From positions 62,001-126,000 of the forward strand of contig JAPKYZ010000101.1 in assembly GCA_026394055.1 (NCBI GenBank): a DNA stretch of 64,000 nucleotides. Direction: 5' to 3'. The notes under the pieces are model-generated. The model searched no databases and was not told the origin of the DNA. It saw only the letters and a list, made by a program, of their open reading frames with translations. This DNA comes from Acidobacteriota bacterium. GTDB taxonomy: Bacteria; Acidobacteriota; Terriglobia; Bryobacterales; Bryobacteraceae. The position numbers and the translations under genes are program-made. Below are positions 25,521 through 34,160 of this stretch, one piece after another (position 1 is the first letter of the stretch; the number at the start of each line of letters is the position of its first letter).

Positions 25521-25579
25521 CATTTTGGGCCAAAGATTGAGTCCCCACATTTGCCTTATCCCTCGCACACGTCCAGCGG

Positions 25580-25585
25580 TATGAT
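25580..25585 (+). promoter_or_regulatory. -10 box at a predicted leaderless start (modA-like gene)
   Basis: TATGAT ends 7 bases before ATG 25593. The two earlier ATGs (25581, 25584) overlap the box itself, so 25593 is the likelier start. Confidence 0.5.
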
Positions 25586-25592
25586 GGTGAAC

Positions 25593-26375
25593 ATGGGCTG
25601 CCGTATCCTTCCGCTCCTCCTGGCTGCGTTCATTTCATTAGACTTAACGGCGTGGGCACAGAAGACCCCCAAGTCGGCCGCTGAGATCCCGGCGCTGCTG
25701 GTAGCGGCTGCGTCCGATATGGCTCCGCTGGAGGCACCGCTCAAAGAAGCCTTTAAGGACGCCACCCTCACCTTCACCTTTGGGGCAAGCGGCATGCTGG
25801 CCCGTCAGATTGATGCCGGGGCTCCGTTTGATGTCTTCCTGTCGGCCAATGAGGCGCTGATGCTGGATTTGGTGAGCAAGGGCAAGGTTGAATCGAACGA
25901 TGTCCAGATTTTCGCCACCGGACGGCTGGCACTGTGGTCAAAGTCCGGAGCGATCCAGAACTTTGACGATTTCGCCAAGTTTCAGAAATTGAAGATCGCC
26001 ATCGCCAACCCGCAGCACGCACCCTACGGCTTGGCCGCCCAGCAATCGCTGAAGCGGTTCGGGATCTGGGAGCGGTACCAGCCCTCAATTGTGCTGGCCG
26101 AGAATGTCCGGCAGGCGTTTCAGTTTGCCGAAAGCGGCAATGTGGACGTCGCGCTGACGGCGTGGTCACTGGTGCATGACAAGGGCGGCATCCTGGTTCC
26201 CGCCGAAGCCCACGCCCCAATCCGGCAAGTAGGAGCCGAAATCCGGCGATCGAAGCAACGCAAGGCCGCGCGGAAGCTGGTCGAGTTCCTGATGTCGCCC
26301 GAGGGGCGGAAGCTGCTGACCGGCCATGGTCTATTTGTCAGCGCCTACCGGCCGAGTTTGAATTTGAAGAAATAG
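25593..26375 (+). CDS. modA: Molybdate ABC transporter substrate-binding protein (ModA-like)
   Basis: The 260-residue protein has a signal peptide ending near TAWAQ and the periplasmic binding-protein pattern of Mod[56 protein letters not shown] and a late segment around SPEGRKLL. The early serine (AASDM) and GASG would contact the oxyanion. Family members bind molybdate or tungstate. No modB or modC follows, so it either uses a transporter encoded elsewhere or is an orphan binding protein. ATG 25593 is preferred because of the adjacent -10 box. It diverges from dnaK. Confidence 0.85.
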
Positions 26376-26452
26376 CGTTCGCCTCAAGTGCGGGCAAGTG
26401 GGAAAACGCCTCCAGCCGTCCCAAGAAATAAGATACCACTGATATCTGATGG

Positions 26453-26473
26453 TTAATGCTTCCGAAACATTAA
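26453..26473 (+). terminator. Weak hairpin downstream of the ModA-like gene
   Basis: TTAATG, nine bases and CATTAA form a 6-bp AT-rich stem 78 bases past the stop, with no T-tract. The rest of the 277-base gap holds only a possible -10 TATACT at 26601-26606 for the next operon. Confidence 0.25.
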
Positions 26474-26652
26474 ACCCATTGACTGGAGATGAACGCCGCA
26501 CAATCAAACCACATAAGGAGGAATCATCTTACTCAAGAAGAATTTTCCCATGAGGTCTTTCCTGCAATGAGCCAAGAGAAGCGTCCTCGTGCGATGCGGT
26601 TATACTGCCACAAACATTGTCAGAGCCTGAATACATCGGTTCGGAGGTAAAC

Positions 26653-27153
26653 GTGTCCATTTTTCATGCACTTTCTGGCCTCATGCTCCTAACCTGGGCA
26701 ACTTTGGCTAACGCACAAACATTGTCGCCAACTCCACCGCCAGGCGATCCCGAAACCACCGCTATTTTCCTTCGGGTCCACGCTTCGTTACTCGACGACA
26801 TTGACGCGCTTTCAGCGCGAAACACCGCCGCTGCGCAAGCGGCATACAAAGAGTTGGCGGAAAGAATCGGAGTAAAGGCCGCCACGCTTCCGAAACTGCA
26901 AACCGCTCATCGGCGGCTCCAAGGTGACGTGGGAAAGCTTGATCAGGAGATACTCGCTTACCTTCACAACCGGGCTGCTCAGCTGACGACTGTGGATGCC
27001 ACTGTGCTGAGAAAGTTCGAGCAGCAACGCCAGGAATCTATCCAGGCCGCCGTTCGCGGGCTGGAGGCCGATTTGGGAAGCGACTGGATCGTCATCAAAC
27101 AATACGTCGACACGACATTCCGCCACTATATCAAGAGGAGCACCCTGCAATGA
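26653..27153 (+). CDS. Small secreted helical protein, first gene of an AT-richer operon
   Basis: The 166-residue product starts at GTG 26653, five bases after GGAGG, with a signal peptide (LSGLMLLTWATLANAQ). The mature part is predicted mostly helical: FLRVHASLLDDIDAL, AAYKELAERIGV, RRLQGDVGKLDQEILAYL and KFEQQRQESIQAAVRGLEAD. I recognise no family. The stop overlaps the next start by ATGA, so the two are translationally coupled. Codon use is visibly more AT-rich than in neighbours. It may form a helical dimer or interact with the 401-residue product of the next gene; this is inference from order only. Confidence 0.7.
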   Translation: MSIFHALSGLMLLTWATLANAQTLSPTPPPGDPETTAIFLRVHASLLDDIDALSARNTAAAQAAYKELAERIGVKAATLPKLQTAHRRLQGDVGKLDQEILAYLHNRAAQLTTVDATVLRKFEQQRQESIQAAVRGLEADLGSDWIVIKQYVDTTFRHYIKRSTLQ

Positions 27154-28355
27154 TCTTGCAATTCGTTTCGTTCTTATTTGTTTTTGTGTTTTGCGCGGAA
27201 GCAACAATTGCGCAATGCACATCTAGTGACACTGTCATTTATGGTGTCTATTATCCGATAACGCGGTTAGACGGAAACAACGTATGGGGATATTCTGAGA
27301 CAACCATTGTGGGATCCTATCGGAACTATTGGCGGCCCTACATCACCGGCTATATGTCGCGCAATGGTAGCCAAATTGGCAGCCCGGTTGGCGAGCTCGG
27401 CCCAGGATCGAATGGAGGTACGCAATCTGTGACGATGACGCCCACTCTTTCGGTTTGGGGGCCAGGTACCTACTCGATGCGCGCCTTTCATCGCGCCTTC
27501 AACTGGGTTTGCGGTTATTGGGTACCGCCCTATTCTAATGGTTGGGACGGAAATTCCTATTCCTCACCCAATCTAACCGTTGAAAGACCGGTCATCTCGC
27601 GGACCGTAGTGCCGTACTTTTTGGGGCCCGGGGTTGTGTCCAGCAATGACTACTCAAGTCAGACGCAGATGAGCGTTAACTCCAAAGGCGCGCCTGAAAC
27701 TCCCCAGTGGAGGTTTGAGTCGGGCTCGACATACGGCACCTTGAACTGTACGAATTGCGCTTCCCCCATCTATCAGGCAACGGCTCCTGGCTCGTCGTGT
27801 GGCGCATATAATGTTGTGCTAAAGGCCAGCTTCAACGGCTTCGATTCCGAGGCTTTCTATATTGATAATCAGTCGCCAAACTTGCTTCAGTATGTTCGAA
27901 CGGATCACTACATACCGCCGCAGGGTGGATGGCAGTCTGAAGTGTTCTATCGGGTGCAGAGCGGGTGCAATATTCAGATGACGAATGTTCAGGCTAACGA
28001 GGTCTTCTTGAGTTGGAGCCAATTCAATGGATCCAATTGGGATGCACCGCTGGAGGCCACAGGGTTTTCGAATTTGGCGTTCGACAGCGGCACAGGAAGC
28101 TGGCTTCTTCGAGATATTCTCTATGAAGTGCCGGTGGTTGGAAAAACACCGCAACCGATGAATGCCGGCACGAATGGATTGAGTATAGCTCAACAGTGGT
28201 TAATGACGCAGCACTTGCAAAAATGGCGGATAGGTTCGACTGACAATGGCGGGTCAATAGTAGGCGGACCACGTCAAGGCAACGATGCGACCGCTAAGGG
28301 AGTTGTCGTTGGTTCCAATCCGCACTATCACTATATCGATCACGGCTCACATTGA
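27150..28355 (+). CDS. Secreted protein of unknown function, cysteine- and aromatic-rich
   Basis: The 401-residue protein has a signal peptide (FVSFLFVFVFCAEATIAQ) and a beta-rich mature part containing YSETTIVGSYRNYWRPYITG, WGPGTYSMRAFHRAFNWVCGYW, a LNCTNCASP segment and PGSSCGAYNVVLKASFNG. The pattern suggests extracellular immunoglobulin-like domains held by disulfides, and the C-terminus ends in an His-rich HYHYIDHGSH tail, a possible metal-binding end. No known family is recognised. It overlaps the preceding small gene by four bases and is followed 13 bases later by the HEAT-repeat protein, with GGAGG between. Confidence 0.75.
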   Translation: MILQFVSFLFVFVFCAEATIAQCTSSDTVIYGVYYPITRLDGNNVWGYSETTIVGSYRNYWRPYITGYMSRNGSQIGSPVGELGPGSNGGTQSVTMTPTLSVWGPGTYSMRAFHRAFNWVCGYWVPPYSNGWDGNSYSSPNLTVERPVISRTVVPYFLGPGVVSSNDYSSQTQMSVNSKGAPETPQWRFESGSTYGTLNCTNCASPIYQATAPGSSCGAYNVVLKASFNGFDSEAFYIDNQSPNLLQYVRTDHYIPPQGGWQSEVFYRVQSGCNIQMTNVQANEVFLSWSQFNGSNWDAPLEATGFSNLAFDSGTGSWLLRDILYEVPVVGKTPQPMNAGTNGLSIAQQWLMTQHLQKWRIGSTDNGGSIVGGPRQGNDATAKGVVVGSNPHYHYIDHGSH

Positions 28356-28368
28356 CGGAGGTATATAT

Positions 28369-29502
28369 ATGCAAACAAATACTCACACACTGCTGCGGGT
28401 CATCATTCTCGTAGTGATGTGCACCTTTTTGTCAGCTGCCTCTTCGGTCCCAAACTTGACGGCGGCGTCCGATGTAATTGTAGTTGCAAGGATAGTCGGC
28501 GGCAACAATACACAGCAATCTCGCGAACTTAGCTTTATCGTTGATCATGTACTGAAGGGCGATCTGCGGCCGGGCGTACTGGTCCGCGCTGCTGTTGTGG
28601 CGGCTGCCGGTCGGGCCCAAGCCCTTCTGCCCCCCACATTGGAAGCTGGCTTAGTCTTTCTAAAGCGGGTCAACGATGGGTCTTTCAGTGTGTTGTCTGC
28701 GGAGAGTGGAGAGTTGGGTTTGCGTGATGCATATCTGCCTCTTTTGCCGGGGCAGCCCGCGTTTTCTAATCCGAATAGCTCGCCCTTGGAAGCAGTGCAT
28801 CAAATACTTGTGAGCTCCATCGAGCGAGGATCAACGGATGAGCAATACTTGAAGAGAGTCGTCCCGAAGCTCTCACCAACCCATTCCCCCTTTGCAACAA
28901 TGGCACTTCGACGATGGTCTGAAAGCTCCTCCACGCAGCTACGGCTATTGGCCATAGGATCTCTAGTTGGTACAGGGGACGGGCAGGCGGTAATCGCGTT
29001 AAGAGCGGATCTCATGACTTCCTCGTCGGCGCCGCTAGCCCGGGCTACGGCGGGCAGTCTTCATGCCTTCCGGAATCCTGATCCACAGGCAGTAGCCGCG
29101 CTGGGCGATATTGCACGCTCGTCAAGGCAGTCGAAAGAGGTTCAGGAGGCGGTTGCGGCTGCCCTGCAAAATGTTCACACCCGCGAATCGCTGCCAGCGC
29201 TGTATTCTCTGCTAGATAGTCCGCATGCGTCGGTAAGGCAAACCGCGATTGCAGGACTCAGCGCCTTCGCGTTGCAAATGCGGATCCCAAAAGACTCGGC
29301 GGATGCGATGGAGGCTTTGGATGAAGTCTTGAATCCTGGCAGACGGCGGAAGTTGCCCGCGGCGGACGCTCCTTTTGACACCGAAGAAGTTCGGCAGTTC
29401 GCCCATTTTGGGCCATTTGTCAGCCCGGCCGATGAAGCCCGGACCAGCACATTCTGGAAAAACTGGTGCGCGGTTAACTTCGGCCTGACTGGGGCCCCCT
29501 GA
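28369..29502 (+). CDS. Secreted HEAT-repeat protein
   Basis: The 377-residue protein starts at ATG 28369, seven bases after GGAGG (28357-28361), with an export signal (VIILVVMCTFLSAASS). Residues of about 25-130 form a beta-rich domain (DVIVVARIVGG, FIVDHVLKGDLRPG); residues of about 150-340 are HEAT-type helical repeats (LRLLAIGSLVGTGDGQAV, VQEAVAAALQNV, ASVRQTAIAGLSAF). HEAT repeats bind proteins. It is the third gene of the AT-richer operon and ends just before a Gfo/Idh gene. I cannot assign a function. Confidence 0.78.
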   Translation: MQTNTHTLLRVIILVVMCTFLSAASSVPNLTAASDVIVVARIVGGNNTQQSRELSFIVDHVLKGDLRPGVLVRAAVVAAAGRAQALLPPTLEAGLVFLKRVNDGSFSVLSAESGELGLRDAYLPLLPGQPAFSNPNSSPLEAVHQILVSSIERGSTDEQYLKRVVPKLSPTHSPFATMALRRWSESSSTQLRLLAIGSLVGTGDGQAVIALRADLMTSSSAPLARATAGSLHAFRNPDPQAVAALGDIARSSRQSKEVQEAVAAALQNVHTRESLPALYSLLDSPHASVRQTAIAGLSAFALQMRIPKDSADAMEALDEVLNPGRRRKLPAADAPFDTEEVRQFAHFGPFVSPADEARTSTFWKNWCAVNFGLTGAP

Positions 29503-29550
29503 CAATGGCGGGTGGCGCACCAGACGCCACCCCAGGCCCCCACGGGCAGC

Positions 29551-29556
29551 TATGAT
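29551..29556 (+). promoter_or_regulatory. -10 box at a predicted leaderless start (Gfo/Idh gene)
   Basis: TATGAT ends 6 bases before ATG 29563. This selects that start over the upstream frame extension to 29512, and no Shine-Dalgarno is present. Confidence 0.55.
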
Positions 29557-30701: not shown

Positions 30702-31124
30702 CTAGTCGGCTGGACGACTGCGGCGGTCCAGTAATTGGACGTATTGAGATGGCGTGATCACCCGGGTACGTTCCCAGATCACCGGGAAGTGACGGATGTT
30801 TCGAGTGATGAGCAAATCCGCGTTGGCGGCCTGCGCAAGTTCAAGAACCATGTCGTCGTTGGGATCAGGCGATACCTGGAGTTTCACTTCCGGCTCGACG
30901 AATTCGGCTTGTACCGCAATGACGTACAAAAGCCCCTCGATTTCCTTGGGCGGCAGACGGAATTTGGGCCGGTAGAGAACCTCGCGATACTCGTTCCAGA
31001 GGGGTGTACTGAGACAGAACTGTCTTTCCAGGCGGATGTCCGGAATGAGGATCTTCCAGACCGGACTGGTGGCCGCCAAAGCGGCACTAACCACAACGTT
31101 TGTGTCGAGGACGACCCTCGTCAA
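30702..31124 (-). CDS. PIN-domain toxin (TIGR00305-like)
   Basis: The 140-residue protein has the PIN fold acidic residues in order: VVLDTNVVVSA, LWNEYREVL, DPNDDMVLELA and NADLLITRN. Length and phrases match the putative toxin family with a PIN domain that cleaves RNA in a Mg-dependent way. Its start overlaps the stop of the upstream 67-residue gene by ATGA. It is therefore probably a type II toxin with the antitoxin gene first. Confidence 0.85.
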   Translation of the reverse strand: MTRVVLDTNVVVSAALAATSPVWKILIPDIRLERQFCLSTPLWNEYREVLYRPKFRLPPKEIEGLLYVIAVQAEFVEPEVKLQVSPDPNDDMVLELAQAANADLLITRNIRHFPVIWERTRVITPSQYVQLLDRRSRPAD

Positions 31125-33533: not shown

Positions 33534-33572
33534 GCTTCTTCTATGATTGCTGATTCCCGGGATACCAGGGGT

Positions 33573-33578
33573 TATGAT
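33573..33578 (+). promoter_or_regulatory. Possible -10 box of the HNH gene
   Basis: TATGAT ends 9 bases before ATG 33588, one of the leaderless-type pairs. An alternative start at ATG 33543 would place the box inside the coding region. Confidence 0.4.
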
Positions 33579-33587
33579 GCCTTCAGG

Positions 33588-34160
33588 ATGGAGATCCGTA
33601 CGGTTGGAGAGTTGCTGCACTGGTCGTATGCCAACCTCGTAATGGCTCATGCGGCGGTAGCGGCCAAGCGCCTGAAGTATGGCCGGACACAGTTCATCAT
33701 TCGAGCGCGTCTCTATGCCGGGCTGAACAAGGGCACGATGAGTATCGGCCCGCTGGCGGATGATGAGCGGCTGAAGATGGTACTGCCCCAGGCCTGCTGT
33801 TACTGCGAGGATCGGCAACATCTTGCCGCCGACCACCTGATCGCCACCAAGCGCGGCGGAGCCAACTGTGGCGACAATCTTGTCTGGGCCTGCCGAAGCT
33901 GCAATAGCTCCAAAGGGGCTTCGGATGCGCTAAAATAGCGGGCGAAGCGGAATCAGTTCCCGCCGCTATTGGTACTGAGGCGTTACCTGAAAATCGCGCT
34001 CGAGATCAGCGGTAAAGAAGGCATCATGGGTGTTCCGGTGGAGGAAGCCGGAGGTACGCAGTTTTCGCTGTCTGCGATTCCCCGGCAGTATCCGGCGCCC
34101 GATCAGCTGAAGCTATGGATTACTCCAATTGGACTTCAGCAATCTCGCGACGACGACTAG
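33588..34160 (+). pseudogene. HNH endonuclease-like gene interrupted by an in-frame amber codon
   Basis: The first part (33588-33938) encodes an HNH nuclease domain: CCYCEDRQHLAADHLIA, then GGANCGDNLVWACRSCNSSKG, with the CxxC pairs, the DH dyad and the Asn all intact. A TAG at 33936-33938 ends it after DALK. The same frame then continues without further stops as RAKRNQFPPLLVLRRYLKIA and on to 34160, which reads like the natural C-terminus, including basic-aromatic FPPLLVLRRYLK. A single TGG to TAG change would explain this. It is either a recent pseudogene, a truncated but active nuclease, or an amber read-through case. Confidence 0.75.

What the first reader, a model, noticed from the sequence alone, without database searches (positions are those of the whole stretch)
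26653..29502. AT-richer three-gene operon of unrecognised secreted proteins
A small helical protein, a large cysteine/aromatic-rich protein with a His-rich tail, and a HEAT-repeat protein are closely linked (ATGA overlap, then 13 bases), each with a signal peptide. Base use is visibly unlike neighbours, suggesting transfer. None belongs to a family I recognise, so this may be an undescribed surface or secretion-linked complex.
Basis: partly seen in the sequence, partly recalled or inferred. Interest (0 to 1): 0.6.

Follow-up and report, generated by a model that had tools for sequence, protein, structure and literature searches.

The report
Polymorphic secreted effector with HEAT-repeat partner
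Three linked genes in a soil acidobacterium belong to an apparently undescribed family of secreted-protein cassettes whose variable end and matching partner gene are exchanged as a block, the layout bacteria use for toxin-and-antidote pairs, although no toxic activity has been shown yet.

Summary
The trio is real and exactly as described: a helical protein P1 (26653-27153), P2 (27150-28355, ATGA overlap) and, 13 bases on, a HEAT protein P3 (28369-29502). Its GC is 0.535, against a mean of 0.630 and a minimum of 0.592 for equal-length stretches of the window. Two same-genus genomes with 90-93% identical flanks lack it, with ~45-50 bp in its place.

P2 matches no library searched. Relatives are scattered through Acidobacteriota, and nearly every P2 relative is followed directly by a P3-like HEAT gene. 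The C-terminal half of P2 is the conserved part (…NE…NW…Y-x-D-H-G/A-x-H).

The decisive evidence comes from relatives. G099 (a single contig) carries P1-(P2-P3) followed by two P2-P3 modules whose P2 lacks a signal peptide while P3 keeps one. Blocks 97-99% identical flank unalignable ~1.6-kb cassettes (end of P2 plus most of P3). In a congener, P2 at the syntenic locus is ~85-90% identical to residue ~127 and then unrelated. Elsewhere the same slot holds a Peptidase_M23 domain with a different partner.

I conclude that P2-P3 most likely works as a polymorphic secreted effector with a cognate antidote, like the orphan modules of contact-dependent inhibition systems. Activity is untested.

The parts
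26378..26652 (+). Left part of the inserted segment, untranslated leader of the trio
   Evidence: Absent from two same-genus genomes: BLASTN alignments with G110 stop at 26377 and with G070 at 26353, and both resume at 29551. No convincing sigma-70 promoter.
26653..27153 (+). P1: small secreted helical protein (166 aa); relatives precede P2 in many loci, are fused to P3 in one genome and to a P2 N-domain in another
   Evidence: Translation; homologues in the same place in L003, L010, L013, L014, L015, L037, L044; fused to P3 in L073; related to the P1 of the swapped-C-terminus loci by hhalign, probability 94.5, E 7.7e-8
27150..28355 (+). P2: secreted beta-rich protein (401 aa): signal peptide 1-22, N-domain ~24-145, Ig-like ~147-243, conserved C-terminal domain 244-401
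   Evidence: Translation; family alignments; no Pfam match in any of 8 members; AlphaFold model mainly beta but low confidence, pLDDT 42
27879..28352 (+). C-terminal domain of P2 with N283-E284, N296-W297, D322 and the tail Y395-x-D397-H398-G-x-H401; it lies in the exchanged part in relatives
   Evidence: Column conservation over 28 aligned stretches: E284 20/21, W297 19/20, G384 20/21, H401 16/16; cassette breakpoints in G099
28369..29502 (+). P3: secreted protein (377 aa) with an N-terminal beta barrel (~36-108) and HEAT repeats (~139-370); proposed cognate antidote of P2
   Evidence: HEAT_2 E 1.1e-9; AlphaFold pLDDT 67 with strands 36-108 and helices 139-370; Foldseek best matches armadillo/alphaRep repeat proteins at E 2e-3; follows P2 in nearly all loci
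29503..29550 (.). Right end of the inserted segment
   Evidence: Alignment with both sister genomes resumes at 29551

Best explanation
P2-P3 is a module of an undescribed polymorphic secreted effector/antidote system of Acidobacteriota. P2 is exported by its signal peptide; its N-terminal part presents or delivers a C-terminal domain that acts outside the cytoplasm (periplasm or envelope) of competing cells. P3, also exported, is the cognate HEAT-repeat protein that binds that C-terminal domain and protects the producer. P1 is a small helical escort or delivery factor that belongs to the constant half. Diversity arises because the end of P2 and most of P3 are exchanged as one block between homologous constant segments; extra modules, whose P2 lacks a signal peptide but whose P3 keeps one, are a silent reservoir of specificities and antidotes. 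Shown by sequence: export signals, gene order, coupled exchange of P2-end and P3, gain or loss between sister species, P2 decay with P3 kept. Inferred: toxicity, target, binding of P2 by P3, the role of P1.
For: 1) P2 is followed directly by a P3-like HEAT gene in almost every relative, including tandem modules; I found one clear exception, L124. 2) G099 (one contig): P1-P2-P3 followed by two P2-P3 modules. Constant blocks of 528-852 bp at 97-99% identity (end of P3, spacer, N-half of P2) alternate with ~1.6-kb cassettes (end of P2 and body of P3) with no BLASTN match; protein identity falls from 39-40/40 to ~14-18/38 at the same point in all three. P2-2 and P2-3 lack the signal peptide while the P3s keep one. 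L012 shows the same pattern (605 bp at 94%, then divergence). 3) At the syntenic locus in the same genus (G126), P2 is identical in 17-20 of each 20 residues from 21 to 120 and then unrelated. 4) A search with the G099 P2 mostly hits residues 6-137 only: one N-domain carries many C-termini, one of them Peptidase_M23 (E 4.7e-14), with other partner genes, some RHS-repeat-like. 5) P2 is broken while P3 is open in eight modules (L012b, L013, L036, L039, L046, L047, the second copy in this genome, L070) and never the reverse; P3b behind a broken P2b is under purifying selection (dN/dS 0.19). 6) P2 and P3 distance matrices correlate (r 0.79, 0 of 5000 permutations). 7) Patchy, low GC, precise absence in sisters. 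8) This layout is that of CDI orphan modules (PMC3150448), and HEAT proteins are among described immunity types (PMC3482391).
Against: No toxin domain is recognised in the C-terminal domain of the window P2, and within its own family that domain stays homologous (about 40% identical between modules) instead of being replaced by unrelated toxins. Whether the N-domain of the window P2 belongs to the polymorphic N-domain family is unresolved (hhalign probability 15); the link runs through the Ig/C-terminal profile (E about 1e-7 to 5e-9), P1 and HEAT matches. Most polymorphic-toxin immunity proteins are small and cytoplasmic, and P3 is neither. The 8:0 decay asymmetry is a small count, partly from draft genomes, and one locus (L070) was found through P3. 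P3 also exists without P2 (L071, L072, L073). The matrix correlation is not corrected for shared ancestry. No delivery machinery was identified.
Confidence: 0.6

Rival explanations
1. P2 is a cell-surface recognition or adhesion protein that varies its exposed C-terminal domain by cassette exchange (antigenic variation or kin recognition), and P3 with P1 are its dedicated periplasmic chaperones or its receptor.
For: P2 is beta-rich with Ig-like parts; longer relatives carry Big_2 and other Ig-like domains. Coupled exchange of P2-end and P3 fits any specific binding pair. No toxin domain is recognised in the window P2.
Against: Retention of P3 behind broken or signal-less P2 is unexpected for a chaperone. 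An M23 peptidoglycan-peptidase domain occupies the same slot in one relative. P3 sits behind one P2 and does not act as a shared helper.
Confidence: 0.25
2. P2 is an extracellular enzyme (the conserved E, W, D and D-H-G-x-H residues would be its site) and P3 is its inhibitor or maturation factor, for nutrient use and not for competition.
For: Near-invariant E284, W297, D322 and the D-H-[GA]-x-H tail look catalytic or metal-binding.
Against: Nutrient enzymes are not usually organised as tandem signal-less cassettes with an exchanged partner. In the most polymorphic array, G099, the tail motif is absent.
Confidence: 0.1
3. Ordinary accessory secreted proteins with no common function, linked by chance or by being carried on one transferred segment.
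For: Low GC, patchy presence (18 of 399 class genomes), absence in sister species.
Against: The same gene order in unrelated families of the class, tandem P2-P3 units, coupled cassette breakpoints and P1-P3 and P1-P2 fusions are very unlikely by chance.
Confidence: 0.05

Closest known systems
Contact-dependent inhibition (CdiA-CT/CdiI) with orphan modules (PMC3150448)
   Same: Constant N-part and exchanged C-terminal part of the large gene; the partner gene directly downstream changes with it; downstream modules lack the export or start region while the partner stays expressible; some modules are disrupted by insertions
   Different: No CdiB and no VENN motif seen; P2 is small (about 400 aa in the window); the partner is a large secreted HEAT protein, not a small cytoplasmic CdiI; a P1 gene precedes P2
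Polymorphic toxin systems, including Imm-HEAT immunity proteins (PMC3482391)
   Same: Secreted modular protein with an adjacent partner gene; HEAT repeats are described among immunity proteins; C-terminal slot holds different domains in relatives, including Peptidase_M23
   Different: The window-type C-terminal domain is not a described toxin; P3 carries a signal peptide and an extra N-terminal beta domain
Designed armadillo and alphaRep repeat proteins (PDB; nearest folds of P3)
   Same: Repeat-helix binding scaffold
   Different: Fold-level resemblance only (Foldseek E 2e-3, TM 0.3), no evolutionary statement

Membership tests
Polymorphic toxin / CDI-like system | Constant N-terminal part with exchanged C-terminal part at an orthologous locus | tested here: met
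   G099 versus G126 at a syntenic locus: P2 alike to about residue 127, then unrelated; tandem modules in G099. Met in relatives; the window itself holds only one intact module.
Polymorphic toxin / CDI-like system | Partner gene immediately downstream that changes together with the C-terminal part | tested here: met
   Cassette in G099 spans the end of P2 and most of P3; different partners behind different C-termini
Polymorphic toxin / CDI-like system | Orphan modules without export or start region | tested here: met
   G099 P2-2 and P2-3 lack the signal peptide, their P3s keep one. L040b P2 starts 4 bases after P3a and lacks the N-part.
Polymorphic toxin / CDI-like system | C-terminal domain is a toxin | tested here: inconclusive
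   No known domain in the window P2; Peptidase_M23 in the same slot in L156. Toxicity needs an experiment.
Polymorphic toxin / CDI-like system | Partner specifically neutralises the toxin | not testable with these tools
   Needs co-expression and binding assays
CDI (CdiB/CdiA two-partner secretion) | CdiB transporter next to a large CdiA with haemagglutinin repeats and VENN motif | tested here: not met
   No such gene among the ORFs around the trio; P2 is 401 aa without VENN
HEAT-repeat proteins (P3) | HEAT repeats above the Pfam gathering score | tested here: met
   HEAT_2 38.9 bits, cut-off 27.7; 9 of 10 family members match
Peptidase M23 (relative L156 only, not the window P2) | Pfam Peptidase_M23 match above cut-off | tested here: met
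   52.8 bits, cut-off 28.7, residues 176-270 of 306

The most novel reading that the evidence does not exclude
A new superfamily of polymorphic secreted effectors native to Acidobacteriota, with its own small escort protein P1, a new C-terminal toxin fold ending in Y-x-D-H-G-x-H, and exported HEAT-repeat antidotes, delivered by a route not yet known.
Probability: 0.4. Interest if true: 0.8.

Novelty: new variant of a known kind. Interest (0 to 1): 0.62.

Why it matters
Acidobacteriota dominate many soils, yet how they compete with neighbours is hardly known. This gives a defined, small, testable gene pair, a whole family of cassettes with built-in specificity controls (three modules in one genome), and a new domain of unknown activity. 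If confirmed it adds an exported HEAT-repeat antidote to the known kinds of immunity protein.

Tried and rejected
Known families for P1 and P2: Pfam, NCBIfam, PHROGs, PADLOC and PDB sequence searches gave nothing. Structure of P2: AlphaFold with 6 sequences gave pLDDT 42, so I ran no fold search. Plasmids, phages and viral contigs: no P2 relative. First named-genome scan with P0002: nothing; with a tighter alignment, five loci, of which three are Bryobacterales MAGs and two MAGs named only as Acidobacteria. Direct homology of the window P2 N-domain with the polymorphic N-domain family: not shown. Transposon ends around the trio: repeats in the insert do not form paired ends. Low GC as proof of a foreign donor: rejected as sole evidence because most related units are also low in GC in their own genomes. 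Defence system: P3's weak PADLOC hits are generic HEAT similarity.

Full report
What is there. The window lies on contig C94 of a 5.38-Mb draft genome. Its family includes genomes whose P2 loci also turn up in public MAGs named Bryobacterales (Acidobacteriota). The three ORFs are at the stated coordinates with the stated overlaps. GC of 26378-29502 is 0.535, while 546 other stretches of that length in the window average 0.630 with a minimum of 0.592.

The trio is an insertion (or a clean loss in relatives). Upstream is a molybdate-binding-like protein gene (25551-26375), downstream an oxidoreductase gene (from about 29557); these names are my reading of the sequences. In two genomes of the same genus the same two genes, 97-98% identical at protein level, lie only about 45-50 bases apart. 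BLASTN of the flanks (90-93% identity) stops at 26353-26377 and resumes at 29551 in both. Both sisters lack P2. No paired terminal repeats mark the ends.

Families. P1 and P2 have no match in four profile libraries. P3 is a HEAT protein (HEAT_2 E 1.1e-9; 9 of 10 relatives match). The AlphaFold model of P3 (pLDDT 67) shows an N-terminal beta barrel (36-108) followed by repeat helices (139-370); the P2 model is too poor to use. The C-terminal part of P2 holds nearly invariant residues: E284 in 20 of 21 sequences, W297 in 19 of 20, G384 in 20 of 21 and the last histidine in 16 of 16.

Distribution and linkage. P2 relatives occur in 8 of 200 family genomes, 11 of 299 and 18 of 399 class genomes with better profiles and 3 of 396 phylum genomes. 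These are lower bounds because only a few candidates per genome are scored. In almost every P2 locus a HEAT gene of the P3 kind follows directly; the clear exception is L124, and in L123 the next gene is only HEAT-like by eye. P1 precedes P2 in a subset. P3 also occurs without P2 (L071, L072, L073), and in L073 P3 and P1 are one 518-aa protein. P2 and P3 distances correlate (r 0.79, 0 of 5000 permutations), without correction for common ancestry.

Cassette exchange, the key evidence. In G099 (one contig) the order is P1, P2-1, P3-1, P2-2, P3-2, P2-3, P3-3. Self-comparison shows blocks of 528 to 852 bp at 97-99% identity covering the end of P3, the spacer and the N-half of P2, alternating with about 1.6-kb stretches with no BLASTN match covering the end of P2 and the body of P3. 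Protein identity between the P2 copies drops from 39-40 of 40 to 14-18 of about 38 at the same place. P2-2 and P2-3 start about 30 bases after the preceding P3 and have no signal peptide; the P3s examined keep one. L012 shows a 605-bp 94% identical P2 N-part followed by divergence. At the syntenic locus of a congener (G126) P2 is 17-20 of 20 identical per block from residue 21 to 120, and beyond about 130 it is unrelated; its P1 is 58% identical. A search with the G099 P2 in 237 family genomes mostly recovers only residues 6-137: one N-domain with many C-termini. One C-terminus is Peptidase_M23 (E 4.7e-14); some partner genes match RHS repeats. P1 of these loci and P1 of the window are related (hhalign probability 94.5, E 7.7e-8).

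Decay. P2 is interrupted by frameshifts, stops or deletion while P3 is open in eight modules: L012b, L013, L036, L039, L046, L047, L070 and the second copy of this genome. That second copy seems split between contigs C28 and C41 by an insertion element; the transposase is my reading of contig-end sequence, and the joining of the contigs is inference. Both genes are broken in L038 (the same contig as L035), L121 and L122. Intact P2 with broken P3 was not seen. A sign test on 8:0 gives about 0.008, and on 7:0 without L070 about 0.016 (my arithmetic). P3b behind the broken P2b of L012 has dN/dS 0.19 against P3a.

Interpretation. Exchange of a C-terminal part together with the next gene, silent modules without the export region, and preferential survival of the second gene are what Poole et al. 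described for CDI orphan modules, including disruption by insertion elements (PMC3150448). HEAT repeats are among described immunity-protein types (PMC3482391). I therefore think P2 is a secreted effector and P3 its exported antidote. Toxicity, target, delivery and binding are inferred. The link from the window to the most polymorphic loci rests on the Ig/C-terminal profile of P2 (E about 1e-7 to 5e-9), on P1 and on HEAT matches; homology of the very N-terminal P2 domains was not shown. The main rival is a varying recognition or adhesion protein with a dedicated chaperone.

Verdict. It is a new variant of a known kind (polymorphic secreted effector with cognate partner), with a P2 domain not matched to any known family here.

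Noticed in passing
window 28240-28254 and 29499-29513: The 15-mer CTGACAATGGCGGGT occurs only twice in the 5.38-Mb genome, both in the inserted segment: once inside a stretch of P2 that relatives lack, once at the P3 stop codon.
   Followed up: partly
L073:2734-4290 (G047): P3 and P1 fused in a single 518-aa protein, without P2 nearby; L074 has the same two parts separated by a transposase-like gene.
   Followed up: partly
L153:5496-6920 (G050): P1 and the P2 N-domain fused in one 474-aa protein with another C-terminus and a 228-aa gene without an obvious signal peptide downstream.
   Followed up: partly
L151, L157, L160: Short P2-like proteins with the polymorphic N-domain followed by ~250-aa partners, two of them matching PF05593 RHS repeats, in L157 in tandem copies.
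   Followed up: no
L071 and L073: Solo P3 genes lie next to large permeases that read like MacB/FtsX-type acidobacterial duplicated permeases (by eye).
   Followed up: no
window 30702-31124 and 33543-33938: ORFs that read like a PIN-domain toxin and an HNH endonuclease; not searched in any library.
   Followed up: no
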